This document shows, piece by piece, positions 22,619-33,185 of a DNA stretch of 64,000 bases. Within the stretch, counting starts at the first letter, position 1, and each line of letters starts with the position of its first letter. Source of the stretch: Aggregatilinea lenta (GTDB taxonomy: Bacteria; Chloroflexota; Anaerolineae; Aggregatilineales; Aggregatilineaceae). The notes beneath the pieces were generated by a model. That model did not search any database and had not been told where the DNA came from. It worked only from the letters and a program-made list of their open reading frames with translations. Location: assembly GCF_003569045.1 (NCBI RefSeq), contig NZ_BFCB01000002.1, positions 1,593,506-1,657,505 of the forward strand, read 5' to 3'. The position numbers were made by a program, and so were the translations under genes.

Positions 22619-22948
22619 CATCGTCTCCTTGTGCTTCATATCGTGTTTCACGTCGCGCTTCAGTATTCCACTCGCGGTTGCAGTACACTGCGGTCCCGGT
22701 GAGCGGCGGATGGGTCTGGCGCGCAAACCAGACGCCGTGCGTCCACTGCTCATGGACAACTTTACATGAAAGAGGGCCATTTTTGGGTGTGAATCACCTT
22801 AAAAATCAATTACAAATCAGAAATATCATCAAAATTCGACTCCGCCAGAGGCGTAGTAGTACAGGTGGCCCGTGGCCAAAGTGCGCTGCCGCTCCTACAA
22901 TGGCATAATAGGGGCTGACGACTTTCCCAGGCGAACGGAGGCGTGCTC
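22619..22948. other. Divergent promoter region, locally AT-rich
   Basis: 330 bases between the dioxygenase gene and the propeller lipoprotein gene. Bases about 22800-22850 are unusually AT-rich for this window, as expected for promoters. A small inverted repeat GGTG-TGAAT-CACC lies at 22786-22798. TACAAT at 22896 and CATAAT at 22904 could be -10 boxes for the plus-strand gene. Confidence 0.4.
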
Positions 22949-25057
22949 GTGATCGTCCATGCAAACGTCCGATCCCGTACTATGTTCAAAGCGCTGGCTC
23001 TGGCCGCGCTCGTCACGGCCAGCCTGACGGCTTGCGGCAGTGATAAGGACGATCCCCCACCCCCCACCGTCGCAGACATCGCCGTGCTGGCGGCCAGCGC
23101 GCCGCCGATGACATTCGCGCCTACGTATGACCCGGCGATCACCTTCGAGCCGACGACCGTCGCCTCGCTGCCCTCGCCCACGCTGGACCTGCCGACCCAA
23201 ACCCCACTGCCCACCGATCCGCCGCCGACCGCGTCGCCCGTCCCCACAGACGCCCCCACTCTCGCGCCAACGGATGTGCCGACTGAAGCGCCCACCGACC
23301 CGCCCACAGATGTACCCACAGTGGCCCCGGTCGAAACGGACGCGGTCGAGGTGGCGATGCTGAGCACCGACGCTGCGACTGAAATGCCAACCGACGCCGC
23401 AACGAGCGAAGCGACCGAGTCCGCAGCGGATACGCCCGTGACGATCCCGACCGAGATCGCGACCGAAGAAGCCGGGACCGGCGCGCCGCTGACCTTCGTC
23501 TACTACACCAACCGCGACGGCACGGACGACGTGATCCTGCACGCAGTGGACGGCACGGAGTATCCGCTGGCCGCGACGGGCGCGAGCGAGCGCGAACCCA
23601 CCTGCTCGCCGGACGGCAGCACGGTCGTGTATGCCTCCGACGCGACGGGCAATTACCAGCTTTACGCATTGCGCGCCGGAAGCGACACGCCGATGCAGCT
23701 CACCGCCTCCGAGGGGATCAACTTCGCGCCGTCATTCAGCCCGGACGGCAGCACGATCGCGTTCGTCTCGACGCGCAACGAGGGCACGCCCACCATCTGG
23801 CTGGTCAACGCCGACGGCACCAATCCGCGCCAGCTCACCACCGGCCTGGGACGCGACACGTCGCCCGCGTGGGGGCCGGACGGGCAGCAACTGCTATTCG
23901 CCACCGACCAGGAAGGCACCTGGGACGTGTTCCTGACCATCGTCGGCGGTGAGACCGAAGGCGAGTTCCCGGTGCTGCCCGCCGACTTCAGCGACGGCAA
24001 CGAGATTTGGCCGGTATTCGACCCGCTGGGCGTGCGCATCGCCTACAGCACCTGGGGCGACCTGAACGACCCGGCCACCTCCAACCTGTACCTGCTCGAC
24101 TTCGAACTGCCGGAGCCGCAGCCGCTGCGCGTCGAGGACGGCGCGGACATCGCGTGGTCCTGGGCGGACAGCACGCACCTGCTGGCCTCCGCCAGCGTAA
24201 ACGGCGGCACGCCGATCGTGATGCTCGACATCACCACGGGCGAGATCGTCCCGCTGACCGGCATCGAGGGCTTCAACGCCGGGGCGCGTCCCTGCGCGAT
24301 CGATCCCGCCGTGCTAACGGGCGAAGCCACCCCGCCGCCTGATGCCACCAGCGAGCCGGAGCCGGTCAGCACGGACGAGATCACGACCGAAGACGGGGCG
24401 GTTGGGCGCAACATCGAGGGCAGCAACCGTGACAAGTCGCCCGCCTTCACGAACGACGGCTACGTGCTTGCGCCGGACCTGCTGGACGCGGGTGGCGCGC
24501 GGCACATCGTGCAGCCCGGCGAGAACCTGATCAAAATCGGCGGACGCTATGGCACGACCTGGACCGAGCTGGCAGCGCTCAACGCGCTGCCGGACCCGGA
24601 CCGGCTCACCGTCGGCCAGAGCCTGGTCGTGCCCGTGCACCGCATCGTGTACCCGGTGGGCGGGCCGCAGCCCTACGACGAGGATCTCCAGGAGCCGATG
24701 ACCGCCGGGAAGGAGATCGTCGTCAAGCTGGACGAGCAGCACGTGTATGCGTATGAGGATGGCAAGCTCGTGCGGGACGTGGTCGTCTCGACCGGGCTGC
24801 CGGACACGCCGACCGTCACCGGAACGTTCGCCATCTACCAAAAGCTGCCCTCACAGACGATGCGCGGTCCCGGCTACTATCTACCCGGCGTGCCGTACGT
24901 GATGTACTTCCACGAGAGCTACGGGCTGCACGGCACGTACTGGCACGACAACTTCGGCCAGCCGATGAGTCACGGCTGTGTCAACCTGCCCACGCCCGAC
25001 GCGCAGTGGTTCTACGCCTGGGCCGAGATCGGCACGCCCGTGATCGTGATGTCCTGA
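22949..25057 (+). CDS. Lipoprotein with TolB-like propeller, LysM and L,D-transpeptidase domain
   Basis: 702 residues from GTG at 22949, which has GGAGG seven bases upstream; a GTG at 22943 and an ATG at 22982 are alternatives. The signal peptide ends in a lipobox SLTACG (lipidated Cys). A long Thr/Pro/Ala-rich linker (to about residue 160) leads to PD40 propeller blades with SPDGSTVVY, SPDGSTIAFVS and GPDGQQLLFAT. A LysM repeat follows (HIVQPGENLIKIGGRYGTTW, about residue 510) and then a YkuD L,D-transpeptidase with the catalytic motif MSHGCVNL near the C-terminus. LysM binds peptidoglycan and YkuD forms 3-3 cross-links or attaches proteins to it. Combining these with a propeller in one lipoprotein is uncommon. 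Monocistronic. Confidence 0.9.
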   Translation: MIVHANVRSRTMFKALALAALVTASLTACGSDKDDPPPPTVADIAVLAASAPPMTFAPTYDPAITFEPTTVASLPSPTLDLPTQTPLPTDPPPTASPVPTDAPTLAPTDVPTEAPTDPPTDVPTVAPVETDAVEVAMLSTDAATEMPTDAATSEATESAADTPVTIPTEIATEEAGTGAPLTFVYYTNRDGTDDVILHAVDGTEYPLAATGASEREPTCSPDGSTVVYASDATGNYQLYALRAGSDTPMQLTASEGINFAPSFSPDGSTIAFVSTRNEGTPTIWLVNADGTNPRQLTTGLGRDTSPAWGPDGQQLLFATDQEGTWDVFLTIVGGETEGEFPVLPADFSDGNEIWPVFDPLGVRIAYSTWGDLNDPATSNLYLLDFELPEPQPLRVEDGADIAWSWADSTHLLASASVNGGTPIVMLDITTGEIVPLTGIEGFNAGARPCAIDPAVLTGEATPPPDATSEPEPVSTDEITTEDGAVGRNIEGSNRDKSPAFTNDGYVLAPDLLDAGGARHIVQPGENLIKIGGRYGTTWTELAALNALPDPDRLTVGQSLVVPVHRIVYPVGGPQPYDEDLQEPMTAGKEIVVKLDEQHVYAYEDGKLVRDVVVSTGLPDTPTVTGTFAIYQKLPSQTMRGPGYYLPGVPYVMYFHESYGLHGTYWHDNFGQPMSHGCVNLPTPDAQWFYAWAEIGTPVIVMS

Positions 25058-28288: not shown

Positions 28289-28627
28289 CTACAGCGTCTC
28301 GCCGCTCGGCTCGGCCACGTACTTCGACACGGGCCGCTCCAGCGGGGCCACGCGCGCGCCGACGTAGTCGTAGCTCACGCTCAGCTTGTTTTCGCCCGGC
28401 GCAGACAGCACCGCCTTATCCGTCACATCCGCATCCTGCTTTTCCACCAGCGTCACGCTGACCCGCTGGCTCGGCAGCAGGTAGAGCGTGCGGTACTCGT
28501 CGTGGTACGAGTTGCGGAAGAACTTCATCACGGCGGCAGGGTCGAGACGCCGCATCTCTTTGCGGGCGTCCTTCCAGGACATGGCGCTCAGGCGCTGGGC
28601 AAGCTGATCTCGCTCGGTTTCGTTCAT
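28289..28627 (-). CDS. Small protein of unknown function
   Basis: 112 residues; GGAG six bases before the ATG. The N-terminal half is charged and helical (ERDQLAQRLSAMSWKDARKEM), the C-terminal half looks beta-rich (YRTLYLLPSQRVSVTLVEKQ, KLSVSYDYVGARV). No signal peptide, cysteines or membrane segment. Not recognised. It is divergent from xseA and separated from fabI by a composite repeat. Confidence 0.65.
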   Translation of the reverse strand: MNETERDQLAQRLSAMSWKDARKEMRRLDPAAVMKFFRNSYHDEYRTLYLLPSQRVSVTLVEKQDADVTDKAVLSAPGENKLSVSYDYVGARVAPLERPVSKYVAEPSGETL

Positions 28628-28880: not shown

Positions 28881-30089
28881 ATGGCCGAACCATTTACCGT
28901 TCACCAGATTACCCTTTACATCCGGGACCTGTTCGACCTGGATCTCACGCTTCAAGACGTGTGGATCGAGGGGGAAGTCAGCAACTTCAAACAGGCCGCC
29001 TCCGGTCACCTCTATTTCACGCTGAAAGACGCCAACAGCGAGCTGGCCTGCGTGATGTGGCGGTCGCAGGCGGCCCAGTTGAGCGCCCTGCCGCGCCACG
29101 GCGATGCCGTGCTGGTGCACGGGCGCATTGCCGTCTACGAGGCACGCGGCCAATACCAGCTTTACTGCGACATGCTCCAGCCCGCCGGAGTCGGGGAGCT
29201 GAACCGGCAGTTCGAGCTGCTGAAGGCCAAGCTCGACGCGGAAGGGCTGTTCGACGCCGAACGGAAGCGTGCGCTCCCCCGCACGCCGCACCGCATTGGG
29301 GTGGTGACGTCGCCCACGACGGCGGCCTTCCAGGACATCCAAAATGTGATCCGCCGTCGCTACCCGCTGGTGGAGATTTTGCTCAGCCCGGCGCAGGTTC
29401 AGGGCCGCGACGCCGCGCCGCAGATCATCGCCGCGCTGGACCGGTTGAATCGCCGCGACGACATCGACGTCATTTTGCTGGCACGCGGTGGCGGCAGCCT
29501 GGAAGACTTGTGGTGCTTCAACGACGAAGCGCTGGTGCGCGCCGTCGCGGCGTCGCGCCTGCCGGTAGTGACTGGCGTCGGCCACGAGATAGACTTCACG
29601 CTGGTCGACTTCGCCGCCGATCACCGCGCGCCCACGCCCTCGGCGGCGGCGGAGCTGCTCACGCCGGACGGGGCCGCGCTGCGCCAGGAACTACGCCTGC
29701 GCCGCGACCGGCTGGAAGGCGCGCTGCTGAACGCCCTCGACGGGTGGCGGGACCGGCTGGAAGCCAACCAGCGCTGGCTGGAACGCCTGTCGCCTGCCGT
29801 GACGGTGCAAAACGCCCGCCAGCGTGTCGACGACATGACCGGGCGGATGGACGCAGCTCTACGCCGGACGTTGGAACGCCGCCGTGACCGGCTCGACGCG
29901 CGCGCTCGCGCCCTGCACGCGGCCAGTCCCGATGCGCTGCTGGCGCGCGGCTATGCGATGGTCAGCCGGACAGCGGACGGGCGCCGCGTTACCAGCATTC
30001 AGGACGCGGCGGAAGGCACATCGCTTACTATTACCCTGCACGATGGGCAGTTAACCGCGACGGTTCGTGAACGCCGCGCCGATTCATAA
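28881..30089 (+). CDS. xseA: Exodeoxyribonuclease VII large subunit
   Basis: 402 residues from ATG at 28881; an in-frame TTG at 28872 is less likely. XseA with XseB degrades single-stranded DNA from both ends into small oligonucleotides and acts in repair and recombination in the cytosol. Seen here: N-terminal OB fold with DVWIEGEVSNFKQAASGHLYFTLKD, then RIGVVTSPTTAAFQDI, RGGGSLEDLWCFNDE, VTGVGHEIDFTLVDFAADHRAPTPSAAAE, and a C-terminal stretch of heptad-like Arg-rich helices, all as in the family. It is slightly shorter than the usual 440-450. Its normal partner xseB is not next to it but lies beyond a kinase gene. Confidence 0.95.
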   Translation: MAEPFTVHQITLYIRDLFDLDLTLQDVWIEGEVSNFKQAASGHLYFTLKDANSELACVMWRSQAAQLSALPRHGDAVLVHGRIAVYEARGQYQLYCDMLQPAGVGELNRQFELLKAKLDAEGLFDAERKRALPRTPHRIGVVTSPTTAAFQDIQNVIRRRYPLVEILLSPAQVQGRDAAPQIIAALDRLNRRDDIDVILLARGGGSLEDLWCFNDEALVRAVAASRLPVVTGVGHEIDFTLVDFAADHRAPTPSAAAELLTPDGAALRQELRLRRDRLEGALLNALDGWRDRLEANQRWLERLSPAVTVQNARQRVDDMTGRMDAALRRTLERRRDRLDARARALHAASPDALLARGYAMVSRTADGRRVTSIQDAAEGTSLTITLHDGQLTATVRERRADS

Positions 30090-30114
30090 AAGATAGTGGG
30101 TGTTTAAGAGCAAC

Positions 30115-32937
30115 ATGACCCAAAGTAGAATGGTGGCTTCGCGCTACGAACTCGGCGTGATGATTGGGCGAGGTGGCATGGGTGATGTGTATCGAGGACT
30201 CGATACGCACACCGGCCAACTGGTCGCGATCAAGCTCCTACACGACGATATCGTCACCGAAAACCCCTATTTGGTGGACCGCTTCAAGCGCGAAGGCGAA
30301 GCCCTGCGCCAGCTTAACCACCCCAGCATCGTGCAGATCCTCGACACTGTCGAAGACGGCAACCGCCACTACCTGATCATGGAATACGTGGGCGGCGGGT
30401 CGCTGCGCACCCTGCTCGACAAGCAGGGGCGGCTGCCGGTCGATCAACTGCTCAACATCGCGCTGGACCTGGCCGATGCGCTGGCCCGCGCCCACCGCAT
30501 GAACATCATTCACCGCGACATCAAGCCCGACAACGTGCTGCTGACCGAAACCGGCGAGCCGCGCCTGACCGACTTCGGCGTGGCGCACCTGGGCGACCGT
30601 ACCCGGCTGACGCAAACCGGCTCGGTGATCGGCACCTACGCCTACCTCAGCCCGGAAGCGTGCAACGGTCTGCCGCTCGACGAGCGCGCGGATATCTGGT
30701 CGTTCGGCGTGATGCTCTACGAGGCACTGGCGGGCCAGCCGCCGTTCAAGGCCGAAAGCACCGGCGCGATCCTGACCTCGATCCTTACCCGTCCCGCGCC
30801 CGACCTGTCACGCGTGCGGCCCGAAGTGCCCTACCCGATGGTCAGCCTGATCAGCCGCATGCTCGAAAAAGACCGCGACCGGCGCATCAGCAGCGTGCGG
30901 CTTGTCGGCGCGGAGCTGGAAGCGATGATTCGCGGCTTCGACACGCCCATCCGTGAGCGGATGCTCGGTCCCGTGCCCACGCCGGGCCAGTCATCGCGGT
31001 TCGCCACTCCGCCCAGCGATCAGCCGACCACCGCCGGACAGGAACCCGCCGTCCCAGCGATGGAAGGCGGCACACGCGCCTTCAACACACCGCCCGGCTA
31101 TCCGGGCTATGGCACGCCGCCCTATACGCCACCGGGCACGCCGCCCTACATTCCGCCCGGTACGCCGCCGCCGGGAACGCCACCCGGCACGCCCTACCCG
31201 CCTTACCAGACACCCGGCGGCCAGTGGGTCTACACCCCACCGGACGGCATGGTGCTGCCCACCGGGGAGCGTGTGCCCAGCGGCCCGGCCTGGCGCTGGA
31301 TCACGGCGATCATCGCCATCGTCGCCACGACGATCATCGCCGTCGCCGCGATCGCCATCATCGGTGGGGACAGCGGATCGTCCGGCAACAACGCCGAACC
31401 GCACCCGTCCGCCGTAGCGACCGAGTTTCTACCGGAAGTCGTCGTGCCGGTCGAAGCGGGTGAAACGATGGTGCTGGTCACCAAGCTCGAACAGCTCAGC
31501 GGCATCGAGCAGTTGTCGGGCATGCGCCCGCGCGACGTCAGCCGCTTCATCGTGGACGACCTGGAACAGCGGCTCCAGACCGTCGCGCCGTTTTCGAGTA
31601 TCCGCGTGCGCGCCTATCCGCAGGTGATCACGACCGAGGAGCAGGCTCGCGCCGTGGCCGAGGCCAACGACGCAGCGGTGATCGTCTGGGGTAATTACAG
31701 CACCTCGCTGATCGAGCTGGAAATCCAGGTCGGCGCGCTGGACGGCTATCCGCACAACGGATTCCCGCGCGAGACGCTGGAGCAGACGGCCAACGTGCGG
31801 GTGCACATGCAGGACGAGCGCCAGGAATCCGCCGCGCCCTACGTGCTGGGCGTGCTCGACGTGCTCAACGTGGCGGACGGCGGCGGGTTCGAGACGATGC
31901 GCACCCGCGCCGTGATGGACATCCTCGACACGACGCAGGTCGGCGAAATTCCCGACAACTCGGTGGCGGCCTATACGCACCGCGCGTTCCAGGCCGTGCA
32001 GGACGACCCGGCTCAGGCGGTGCAGATCATCGATACGGCGCTGGCGCTGGACCCCGGCAACCCGATCCTGTACGTCGAGCGCGGCGCGGCCAACCAGCGT
32101 CAGGCGCAGCTGGACGACGCCCGGCGCGACCTGGAAACGGCCCGGCGGCTCGGTCCGGCGCACTGGACGATGCCGCAGTTGCTCCTTTCGACCATGAGTG
32201 ACAACCTGAACGAGGTGTTCGACCTGTTCGACGAGATCATCGCGGAACGCCCGGACGACTGGTTCCCGCTGTTTTTCCGGGGCGCGATCTACTACCAGAG
32301 CGGCGCGTACGACATCGCCCAGGACAACATCGATCAGGCCATCGCGCTGGCGCCCACCGCCAACTTCCCGTACATCTACGGCGCGCTGCTGGCGATGCAC
32401 GAGGGCCGTATCGACGACGCCGGGGCGATGATCCGCACCATTTTGGAGCAGTATCCCGATCCCGACTTCATGAACCGCCTGATCGCGGCGTTCTTCGGCG
32501 GCAGCGCGCTGGACAGTTATGGCTATAAGCTGTCGGCGTTCGGCAACATGGTGCTGGGGCGTTATGATGACGCACTCGATGCAGCGGAGAGCGGCCTGGA
32601 GCACGCCTCGCGTGACGTGGATCTGTACGTCATCCGGGGCTTTTCGCAATGCGCCCTGGGCGATTACGCGCAAGCGGAGCAGTCCTATACCAACGCGATC
32701 GGGCTGGAACCCAATTTCACGATGATCTACCTGCTGCGTGCGGAAGTACGGCGCAAGCAGCGCAGTTTCACCACCGCCGCCGCCGACTTGCAAGCCGTCA
32801 ACCAGAGCATTCACGGCCAGGACTTCATGCCGATCGCAGAAGCCGTGCGCCAGGGCACGATCGGCTGCGGCAACTTCTTCAGCCTGAGCAATCCCCTGCT
32901 GACCCAGGCAGCCACCGCCGAGCCGGACGGAAACTGA
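30115..32937 (+). CDS. Membrane Ser/Thr protein kinase with extracellular TPR region
   Basis: 940 residues from ATG at 30115 (a GTG at 30100 is possible). Hanks-type kinase domain at about residues 10-265: GRGGMGDVYRG (glycine loop), VAIKLLH (Lys), HRDIKPDNVLL (catalytic Asp), DFGVAHL and GTYAYLSPE. A Pro/Thr/Gly-rich juxtamembrane region with repeats of TPPGTPP follows (about 330-390), then one membrane helix (about 392-418), a mixed alpha/beta domain, and TPR-like helical repeats from about residue 628 (AVQIIDTALALDPGNPILYV, QAEQSYTNAIGLEPNFTMIY). The kinase faces the cytosol and the TPR part lies outside, as in PknB-like sensors. It sits between xseA and xseB in the same orientation. Confidence 0.9.
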   Translation: MTQSRMVASRYELGVMIGRGGMGDVYRGLDTHTGQLVAIKLLHDDIVTENPYLVDRFKREGEALRQLNHPSIVQILDTVEDGNRHYLIMEYVGGGSLRTLLDKQGRLPVDQLLNIALDLADALARAHRMNIIHRDIKPDNVLLTETGEPRLTDFGVAHLGDRTRLTQTGSVIGTYAYLSPEACNGLPLDERADIWSFGVMLYEALAGQPPFKAESTGAILTSILTRPAPDLSRVRPEVPYPMVSLISRMLEKDRDRRISSVRLVGAELEAMIRGFDTPIRERMLGPVPTPGQSSRFATPPSDQPTTAGQEPAVPAMEGGTRAFNTPPGYPGYGTPPYTPPGTPPYIPPGTPPPGTPPGTPYPPYQTPGGQWVYTPPDGMVLPTGERVPSGPAWRWITAIIAIVATTIIAVAAIAIIGGDSGSSGNNAEPHPSAVATEFLPEVVVPVEAGETMVLVTKLEQLSGIEQLSGMRPRDVSRFIVDDLEQRLQTVAPFSSIRVRAYPQVITTEEQARAVAEANDAAVIVWGNYSTSLIELEIQVGALDGYPHNGFPRETLEQTANVRVHMQDERQESAAPYVLGVLDVLNVADGGGFETMRTRAVMDILDTTQVGEIPDNSVAAYTHRAFQAVQDDPAQAVQIIDTALALDPGNPILYVERGAANQRQAQLDDARRDLETARRLGPAHWTMPQLLLSTMSDNLNEVFDLFDEIIAERPDDWFPLFFRGAIYYQSGAYDIAQDNIDQAIALAPTANFPYIYGALLAMHEGRIDDAGAMIRTILEQYPDPDFMNRLIAAFFGGSALDSYGYKLSAFGNMVLGRYDDALDAAESGLEHASRDVDLYVIRGFSQCALGDYAQAEQSYTNAIGLEPNFTMIYLLRAEVRRKQRSFTTAAADLQAVNQSIHGQDFMPIAEAVRQGTIGCGNFFSLSNPLLTQAATAEPDGN

Positions 32938-32957
32938 TCATTGGAGGGACACGATCC

Positions 32958-33185
32958 ATGAGCGACGACAACACGACTTTGACCTTCGAGCAGGCGTTCG
33001 AGGAACTGGAAACTATCGTCGGGCAGCTCGAAGCGGGTGACCTCTCGCTCGAAGAGTCGGTGACCCTGTACGAGCGCGGGCAGAAGTTGGCGCTGCTGTG
33101 CGGCGACCTGCTCGACAACGCCGAGCTGCGCATCCAGCAGCTGAACGAGGACGGCACGCAGACCCCCTTCGACCCGCCGGTGTAG
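32958..33185 (+). CDS. xseB: Exodeoxyribonuclease VII small subunit
   Basis: 75 residues, the usual size; ATG after GGAGG (spacing about 10). The XseB pattern is TFEQAFEELETIVGQLEAGDLSLEESVTLYERG followed by a second helix. The protein is a coiled-coil hairpin that binds XseA to form ExoVII. Only 20 bases separate it from the kinase gene, so it depends on readthrough of the kinase transcript or on an unseen promoter. Confidence 0.95.
   Translation: MSDDNTTLTFEQAFEELETIVGQLEAGDLSLEESVTLYERGQKLALLCGDLLDNAELRIQQLNEDGTQTPFDPPV

What the first reader, a model, noticed from the sequence alone, without database searches (positions are those of the whole stretch)
28881..33185. Ser/Thr kinase-TPR gene between xseA and xseB
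The two ExoVII subunit genes are usually adjacent, but here a 940-residue membrane kinase with TPR repeats separates them by 26 and 20 bases. Co-transcription is likely. This may be operon convenience, or it may link envelope sensing to single-strand DNA processing.
Basis: partly seen in the sequence, partly recalled or inferred. Interest (0 to 1): 0.55.

Follow-up and report, generated by a model that had tools for sequence, protein, structure and literature searches.

The report
Kinase gene inside a DNA-repair operon
In one family of Chloroflexota bacteria a gene for a membrane-spanning signalling kinase sits between the genes for the two halves of the DNA-repair enzyme exonuclease VII; the arrangement is old and inherited, but it is not yet known whether the kinase acts on the enzyme.

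Summary
Observation confirmed: xseA (28881-30089), a 940-aa Ser/Thr kinase (30115-32937) and xseB (32958-33185) lie in line, 25 and 20 nt apart, with a terminator-like hairpin after xseB. It is no strain oddity. In the window's family the kinase separates the xse genes in 12 of 12 genomes with both on one contig and touches at least one in 4 fragmentary genomes; 2 of 18 are uninformative. In the order outside this and its sister family the pair is adjacent in 109 of 112 same-contig genomes. Fifteen of 18 kinases found between the genes form one clade; a second clade accompanies or replaces it in four genomes. In the sister family kinases sit beside xseA, not inside (7 of 8 loci), against 0 of 40 loci in the other families. 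The kinase keeps its catalytic motifs and has a membrane helix and an outer alpha/beta-plus-TPR part. The surrounding gene order is older than the kinase's arrival, so persistence alone proves no functional link, and other genes have entered the same joint elsewhere. Best reading: an old, vertically kept insertion of a receptor kinase, probably co-transcribed with ExoVII; direct control of ExoVII by phosphorylation is possible (about 1 in 5) but unproven.

The parts
28881..30089 (+). xseA, exonuclease VII large subunit, 402 aa
   Evidence: TIGR00237 484 bits; Exonuc_VII_L and OB-fold domains
30090..30114 (+). 25-nt gap from xseA to the kinase ATG
   Evidence: sequence; no terminator-like site, but a weak promoter-like match overlaps it at 30104-30131
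30115..32937 (+). Ser/Thr kinase gene, 940 aa, between xseA and xseB
   Evidence: Pfam and NCBIfam; family-wide position
30145..30903 (+). protein kinase domain, aa 11-263, with VAIK, HRDIKPDN and DFG motifs
30967..31284 (+). Pro/Thr-rich juxtamembrane linker, about aa 285-390
   Evidence: translation
31306..31362 (+). predicted transmembrane helix, aa 398-416
   Evidence: mean hydropathy 2.93 over 19 residues
31441..31962 (+). outer alpha/beta domain, aa 443-616, fold class of the TolB N-domain and FlgT
   Evidence: model pLDDT 82.9; FlgT Z 8.6, TolB Z 8.3; no Pfam match at E up to 1
31993..32814 (+). TPR repeats, about aa 627-900
   Evidence: Pfam TPR families; model of the outer part pLDDT 88.0; Foldseek TPR matches
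32938..32957 (+). 20-nt gap from kinase to xseB, contains GGAGGG
   Evidence: sequence
32958..33185 (+). xseB, exonuclease VII small subunit, 75 aa
   Evidence: TIGR01280 75 bits
33218..33237 (+). terminator-like hairpin followed by a T run, likely end of the operon
   Evidence: 7 terminator-like sites found in the region, 3.4 expected in shuffles
28289..28627 (-). small ORF (112 aa), divergent neighbour of xseA here and in other genomes of the order
   Evidence: no Pfam family above cut-off

Best explanation
In the ancestor of this Anaerolineae family a gene for a receptor-type Ser/Thr kinase (cytoplasmic PknB-like kinase, Pro-rich linker, one membrane helix, outer alpha/beta domain of the TolB-N fold class, TPR superhelix) came to lie between xseA and xseB and has been inherited there since, with extra kinase copies and copies of the outer module in some lines (position and clades shown by comparison; the ancestor is inferred). 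xseA, kinase and xseB are probably one mRNA (inferred from spacing and overlaps). The most likely working is that the outer TPR/alpha-beta module binds an envelope or extracellular partner, clusters the kinase and lets it trans-autophosphorylate, as known receptor kinases do (inferred), so that a signalling kinase is made together with ExoVII. This statement leaves the substrates open: the rivals below differ on them and are compatible with it.
For: Kinase between xseA and xseB in 12 of 12 family genomes with both genes on one contig; next to at least one xse gene in 4 more fragmentary ones; 2 of 18 uninformative. Fifteen of the 18 kinase rows found between the genes form one clade (support 99); the other three and one kinase downstream of xseB form a second clade (98). 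In the order outside this and the sister family 109 of 112 same-contig pairs are adjacent. In the XseA tree the family is one clade (99). Gap of 25 nt or less, or overlap, at 10 of 15 xseA-kinase joints and 13 of 15 kinase-xseB joints, with starts chosen mechanically. VAIK, HRD and DFG motifs intact in 22 of 22 kinases examined (19 of the family, 3 of G179), each with a strong hydrophobic stretch. Model and fold matches for the outer part.
Against: No expression data; 3 promoter-like sites against 1.0 expected, two of them on the + strand inside the trio. The two kinase clades are not sisters in the tree: the second groups with kinases of other families (support 85), so more than one arrival, or an old tandem pair, is possible. 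A block of FabI-like gene, small ORF, xse and MurJ is older than the kinase, so persistence may be plain inheritance in a quiet region. In G155 about 950 nt with another ORF lie between the second kinase and xseB; in G156 the ORF upstream of the kinase is not xseA-like; in G155 and G158 the xseA-kinase gap is about 310 nt. The alpha/beta domain's Z values are shared by unrelated tRNA-synthetase domains.
Confidence: 0.6

Rival explanations
1. The kinase directly regulates ExoVII: on an envelope or stress signal it phosphorylates XseA or XseB and so tunes assembly or ssDNA degradation.
For: Family-wide position and tight coupling. In the sister family kinases of two deep clades sit within about 2.1 kb of xseA (7 of 8 loci) against 0 of 40 loci in the other families. 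Some Ser/Thr columns are enriched in the family: XseA T147 (93% S/T; sister family 57%, others 9%) and XseB T67 (13 of 14 in the family; 12 S/T among the listed letters of 47 others). Membrane or damage-responsive kinases acting on repair proteins are known: YabT on RecA (PMC3708118, abstract), RqkA on RecA and PprA (PMC6052341, abstract). ExoVII subunits appear as phosphoproteins in a review table (PMC4754617, passages) and B. subtilis YqiB at Tyr6 (PMC4835898, passage).
Against: Enriched columns may be plain shared descent. Most conserved Ser/Thr of XseA are conserved in all families, kinase neighbour or not. No activity, binding or phosphorylation data exist.
Confidence: 0.2
2. Operon convenience: a duplicating kinase family landed in a permissive joint; its clients are elsewhere, for example in the envelope.
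For: The own genome has 27 Pkinase matches, and relatives of this kinase lie on other contigs or far from xse in other families, for example G188, G193, G209, G237. The xseA-xseB joint has taken other genes: a receiver-domain protein in G223, a toxin-antitoxin-like pair in G129, a 317-aa ORF in G116. The surrounding block is old and includes envelope-related genes: MurJ, a FabI-like gene, an L,D-transpeptidase.
Against: Those other insertions were each seen in a single sampled genome, whereas the kinase is family-wide with catalytic motifs kept, and kinases near xseA recur in the sister family only.
Confidence: 0.5
3. The inserted gene matters mainly as a spacer that changes the XseA:XseB ratio by distance or translational coupling.
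For: Subunit balance matters in E. coli: an excess of XseA over XseB is said to lower activity and XseA overexpression was reported toxic (PMC11077951, passage). The stretch between xseA and xseB runs from about 2.7 to 9.9 kb.
Against: A spacer would not need an active kinase with intact motifs; its length varies more than threefold between relatives.
Confidence: 0.06
4. Assembly or ORF-calling artefact.
For: The named relatives are MAGs by title.
Against: Same order in many independent assemblies and in the 5-contig window genome.
Confidence: 0.01

Closest known systems
PknB/Stk1-type receptor Ser/Thr kinases (Hanks type)
   Same: kinase domain closest to these by sequence (NF033483 300.8 bits; PknB and Stk chains head the PDB list), membrane helix, outer part
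   Different: below the NF033483 cut-off of 450 and no PASTA match; outer part is an alpha/beta domain plus TPR; gene sits between xseA and xseB
YabT of Bacillus subtilis
   Same: membrane Hanks kinase connected with DNA repair (phosphorylates RecA; PMC3708118 abstract)
   Different: YabT lacks an extracellular receptor domain and is activated by DNA; the abstract names no link to ExoVII
RqkA of Deinococcus radiodurans
   Same: DNA-damage-responsive Ser/Thr kinase acting on repair proteins (PMC6052341 abstract)
   Different: different outer domain (recalled); the abstract names RecA, PprA, FtsZ and FtsA, not ExoVII
Ordinary xseA-xseB operon
   Same: both subunits, same order, similar wider neighbourhood in the order
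   Different: in the other families sampled there is usually no gene between the subunits

Membership tests
Exonuclease VII | XseA matches TIGR00237 above cut-off | tested here: met
   484.3 bits against 180
Exonuclease VII | XseB matches TIGR01280 above cut-off | tested here: met
   75 bits against 35
Hanks-type Ser/Thr kinase | Pkinase domain with VAIK Lys, HRD and DFG | tested here: met
Hanks-type Ser/Thr kinase | kinase activity | not testable with these tools
   needs purified protein
PknB/Stk1 PASTA kinases | NF033483 score over the curated cut-off, PASTA repeats | tested here: not met
   300.8 bits against 450, match ends at aa 275; no PASTA family in the Pfam table
TPR repeat protein | several TPR units, alpha superhelix | tested here: met
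TolB N-domain / FlgT-like alpha/beta domain | same fold and sequence profile | tested here: inconclusive
   Z 8.2-8.7 but close to tRNA-synthetase domains at 8.0-8.3; no Pfam hit at E up to 1
Single operon | one transcript | not testable with these tools
   spacing and consensus scans only

The most novel reading that the evidence does not exclude
A transmembrane receptor kinase has been built into the ExoVII operon and couples a signal sensed outside the membrane to the assembly or activity of the ssDNA exonuclease: a phosphorylation-controlled ExoVII peculiar to one Chloroflexota clade, with the association starting in the ancestor shared with the sister family.
Probability: 0.17. Interest if true: 0.8.

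Novelty: new variant of a known kind. Interest (0 to 1): 0.47.

Why it matters
Little seems to be known of how ExoVII activity is controlled (my judgement, not a search result), and excess XseA is reported toxic in E. coli (PMC11077951, passage). A family-wide kinase gene between the two subunit genes gives a concrete, testable candidate regulator and a case of stepwise operon remodelling (adjacent pair, kinase beside xseA, kinase inside). If the kinase acts on ExoVII it would add ssDNA degradation to the repair steps governed by bacterial membrane kinases.

Tried and rejected
Strain-specific oddity: rejected by the family-wide comparison.

Conservation as proof of function: weakened by the control on flanking genes. 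In the 40 loci of other families without a kinase, a FabI-like gene is found in 18 (one a weak 25% match), the small divergent ORF in 12 and MurJ in 21 (counted; many of these loci are short). In the 15 other family genomes shown the small ORF is found in 11, the FabI-like gene in 8, MurJ in 7, again with short contigs.

Family-specific phosphosites: Ser/Thr columns of XseA and XseB were screened; XseA T147 and XseB T67 are the most enriched, XseA T146 and T380 less so; taken as leads only.

Pfam identity of the outer alpha/beta domain: none at E up to 1. Fold search gave TolB, FlgT and HpaA beside unrelated synthetase domains, so only a fold class.

Literature: no paper of the library holds 'exonuclease VII', xseA, xseB and 'protein kinase' together (0 papers), nor 'exonuclease VII', Chloroflexi, operon and kinase (0 papers). 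Subscription journals are mostly not held. Of the listings I opened only the five papers cited here. The search for Aggregatilinea was a guess at the organism and was not followed; the window's species is not identified.

Rows dropped: the XseA tree used rows of 330 aa or more (65 rows). The kinase tree left out domains under 200 aa, identical rows and one duplicate locus (51 rows kept). Alignment A2 used 16 of the 21 loci: L099 was left out for an internal stop and L100 with it; L101-L103 (a distant relative, a fragment, a weak match) were not used. The gap counts rest on listed places: 142 of 145 xseA genomes were listed. 'Adjacent' means HMM places on one strand under 1.3 kb apart.

Full report
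Observation. XseA (28881-30089) and XseB (32958-33185) pass the curated cut-offs of TIGR00237 and TIGR01280. Between them, 25 and 20 nt away, lies a 940-aa protein with a Pkinase domain (aa 11-263) and TPR repeats. A strong hydrophobic segment (aa 398-416) separates the kinase and a Pro-rich linker from the outer part. A terminator-like hairpin follows xseB; none lies in the gaps. Three promoter-like matches were found where 1.0 is expected (sd 0.8); one overlaps the xseA-kinase gap and one lies inside the kinase gene, so internal promoters are not excluded.

Comparison within the family. The window genome (G000) and 17 others make up its family in the order search. Both xse genes lie on one contig in 12 of 18, and in all 12 they are 3 to 11 kb apart, counted between HMM places, with kinase gene(s) of the same architecture between. 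Four more are fragmentary but agree: G154 and G161 (broken over two contigs), G158 (xseA-kinase, contig end, xseB not found), G156 (kinase-xseB, xseA not found; the ORF upstream of the kinase, cut by the contig end, is not xseA-like). G159 and G163 are uninformative.

Spacing and variation. The gap is 25 nt or less, or the genes overlap, at 10 of 15 xseA-kinase joints and 13 of 15 kinase-xseB joints (starts chosen mechanically); the exceptions run to about 310 nt and, in G155, about 950 nt. Kinases of the family are 878-940 aa in some genomes; 1394-1966 aa forms carry two or three copies of the outer module. A kinase-domain tree shows one clade of 15 rows (support 99) that includes the window, and a second clade of four (98): the only kinase of G157, the second kinases of G154 and G155, and one downstream of xseB in G161. 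The two clades are not sisters. VAIK, HRD and DFG are intact in 22 of 22 kinases checked, three of them from G179.

Outside the family. In the order, leaving out this and the sister family, the pair is adjacent in 109 of 112 same-contig genomes; the exceptions are G191 (opposite strands), G286 (273 kb apart) and G223 (one gene between). In the sister family f3, 2 of 10 have the pair adjacent and 8 of 10 have the genes on different contigs. In a class sample of 150 genomes, 142 had at least one listed place, 91 had both on one contig and 85 of these passed the distance rule, G129 among them despite a small gene pair between; of the four same-strand gaps only that of G000 is known to hold a kinase (no kinase in the G018 and G116 loci; G010, 1.5 Mb, not looked at). 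Loci around xseA were scanned with a kinase profile: family 9 of 9 loci given with a kinase; f3 7 of 8 (the eighth contig ends at xseA); other families of the order 0 of 40; class outgroups 0 of 4. The loci are 5.6 to 18 kb long, so short ones could miss a neighbour. In f3 the kinase is beside xseA, within about 2.1 kb, not inside: same-type kinases divergent upstream in G177 and G179, and a kinase of another deep clade without a match to the outer domain in G107, G172, G174, G175 and G176. The XseA tree joins f1 and f3 (support 91, not starred). The simplest history is that kinases came to lie near xseA in the f1+f3 ancestor and one entered the operon in f1; this is inference.

Controls that cut the other way. 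A FabI-like gene upstream, a small divergent ORF next to xseA and MurJ downstream flank xse in the family and in other genomes of the order without a kinase there (18, 12 and 21 of 40 loci). So the block is old, and persistence of the kinase needs no special selection. The joint between xseA and xseB has also taken up a receiver-domain protein (G223), a toxin-antitoxin-like pair (G129; weak Pfam matches) and a 317-aa ORF (G116), each seen in a single sampled genome. The own genome carries 27 Pkinase matches.

Outer part. AlphaFold2 on 17 sequences gave pLDDT 88.0 for the outer part with a TPR superhelix and 82.9 for the alpha/beta domain alone. The latter resembles HpaA (Z 8.7), FlgT (8.6) and the TolB N-domain (8.3), but synthetase domains reach 8.0-8.3, so only a fold class is claimed. 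Pfam has no match for it at E up to 1.

Mechanism. Shown: position, clade structure, intact motifs, architecture. Inferred: one transcript, receptor-like activation, which side of the membrane the TPR part faces. Open: substrates. Precedents for kinases acting on repair proteins are YabT on RecA (PMC3708118, abstract) and RqkA on RecA and PprA (PMC6052341, abstract). ExoVII subunits are listed as phosphoproteins in a review table (PMC4754617, passages; the column, Tyr or Ser/Thr, could not be read), and YqiB carries phospho-Tyr6 (PMC4835898, passage). These show that ExoVII can be phosphorylated somewhere, not that this kinase does it. A screen of Ser/Thr columns gives two leads, XseA T147 and XseB T67, which shared descent could also explain. 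ExoVII is sensitive to subunit balance (PMC11077951, passages), so any gene placed between the two can matter for expression alone.

Verdict. The arrangement is real, old and confined to one clade as far as sampled; the functional claim is unproven. It is a new operon context and outer-domain variant for a Hanks kinase, not a new kind of system.

Noticed in passing
window 28289-28627 (-): A 112-aa ORF of no known family is the divergent neighbour of xseA in 11 of 15 other family genomes, 7 of 8 sister-family loci and 12 of 40 loci of other families.
   Followed up: partly
window 22943-25057 (+): A 704-aa protein with TolB-type propeller repeats, LysM and an L,D-transpeptidase domain lies upstream of the FabI-like gene.
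   Followed up: no
L066, L069, L070, L071, L074, L077, L078: Long kinases (1394-1966 aa) carry two or three copies of the outer alpha/beta-TPR module.
   Followed up: partly
L136:6218-7686: In G181 xseA is split over two reading frames and the second ORF runs on into an xseB-like stretch, a possible fusion or frameshift.
   Followed up: no
L127:3135-3781: A toxin-antitoxin-like pair (weak ParE and Phd/YefM matches) lies between xseA and xseB in G129.
   Followed up: partly
L126:3984-4688: A protein with a hydrophobic N-terminus and a receiver domain lies between xseA and xseB in G223, another signalling gene at the same joint.
   Followed up: partly
L130, L132, L135, L140, L141: In five sister-family genomes xseA and xseB lie on different contigs and xseA has another kind of kinase upstream on its strand.
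   Followed up: partly
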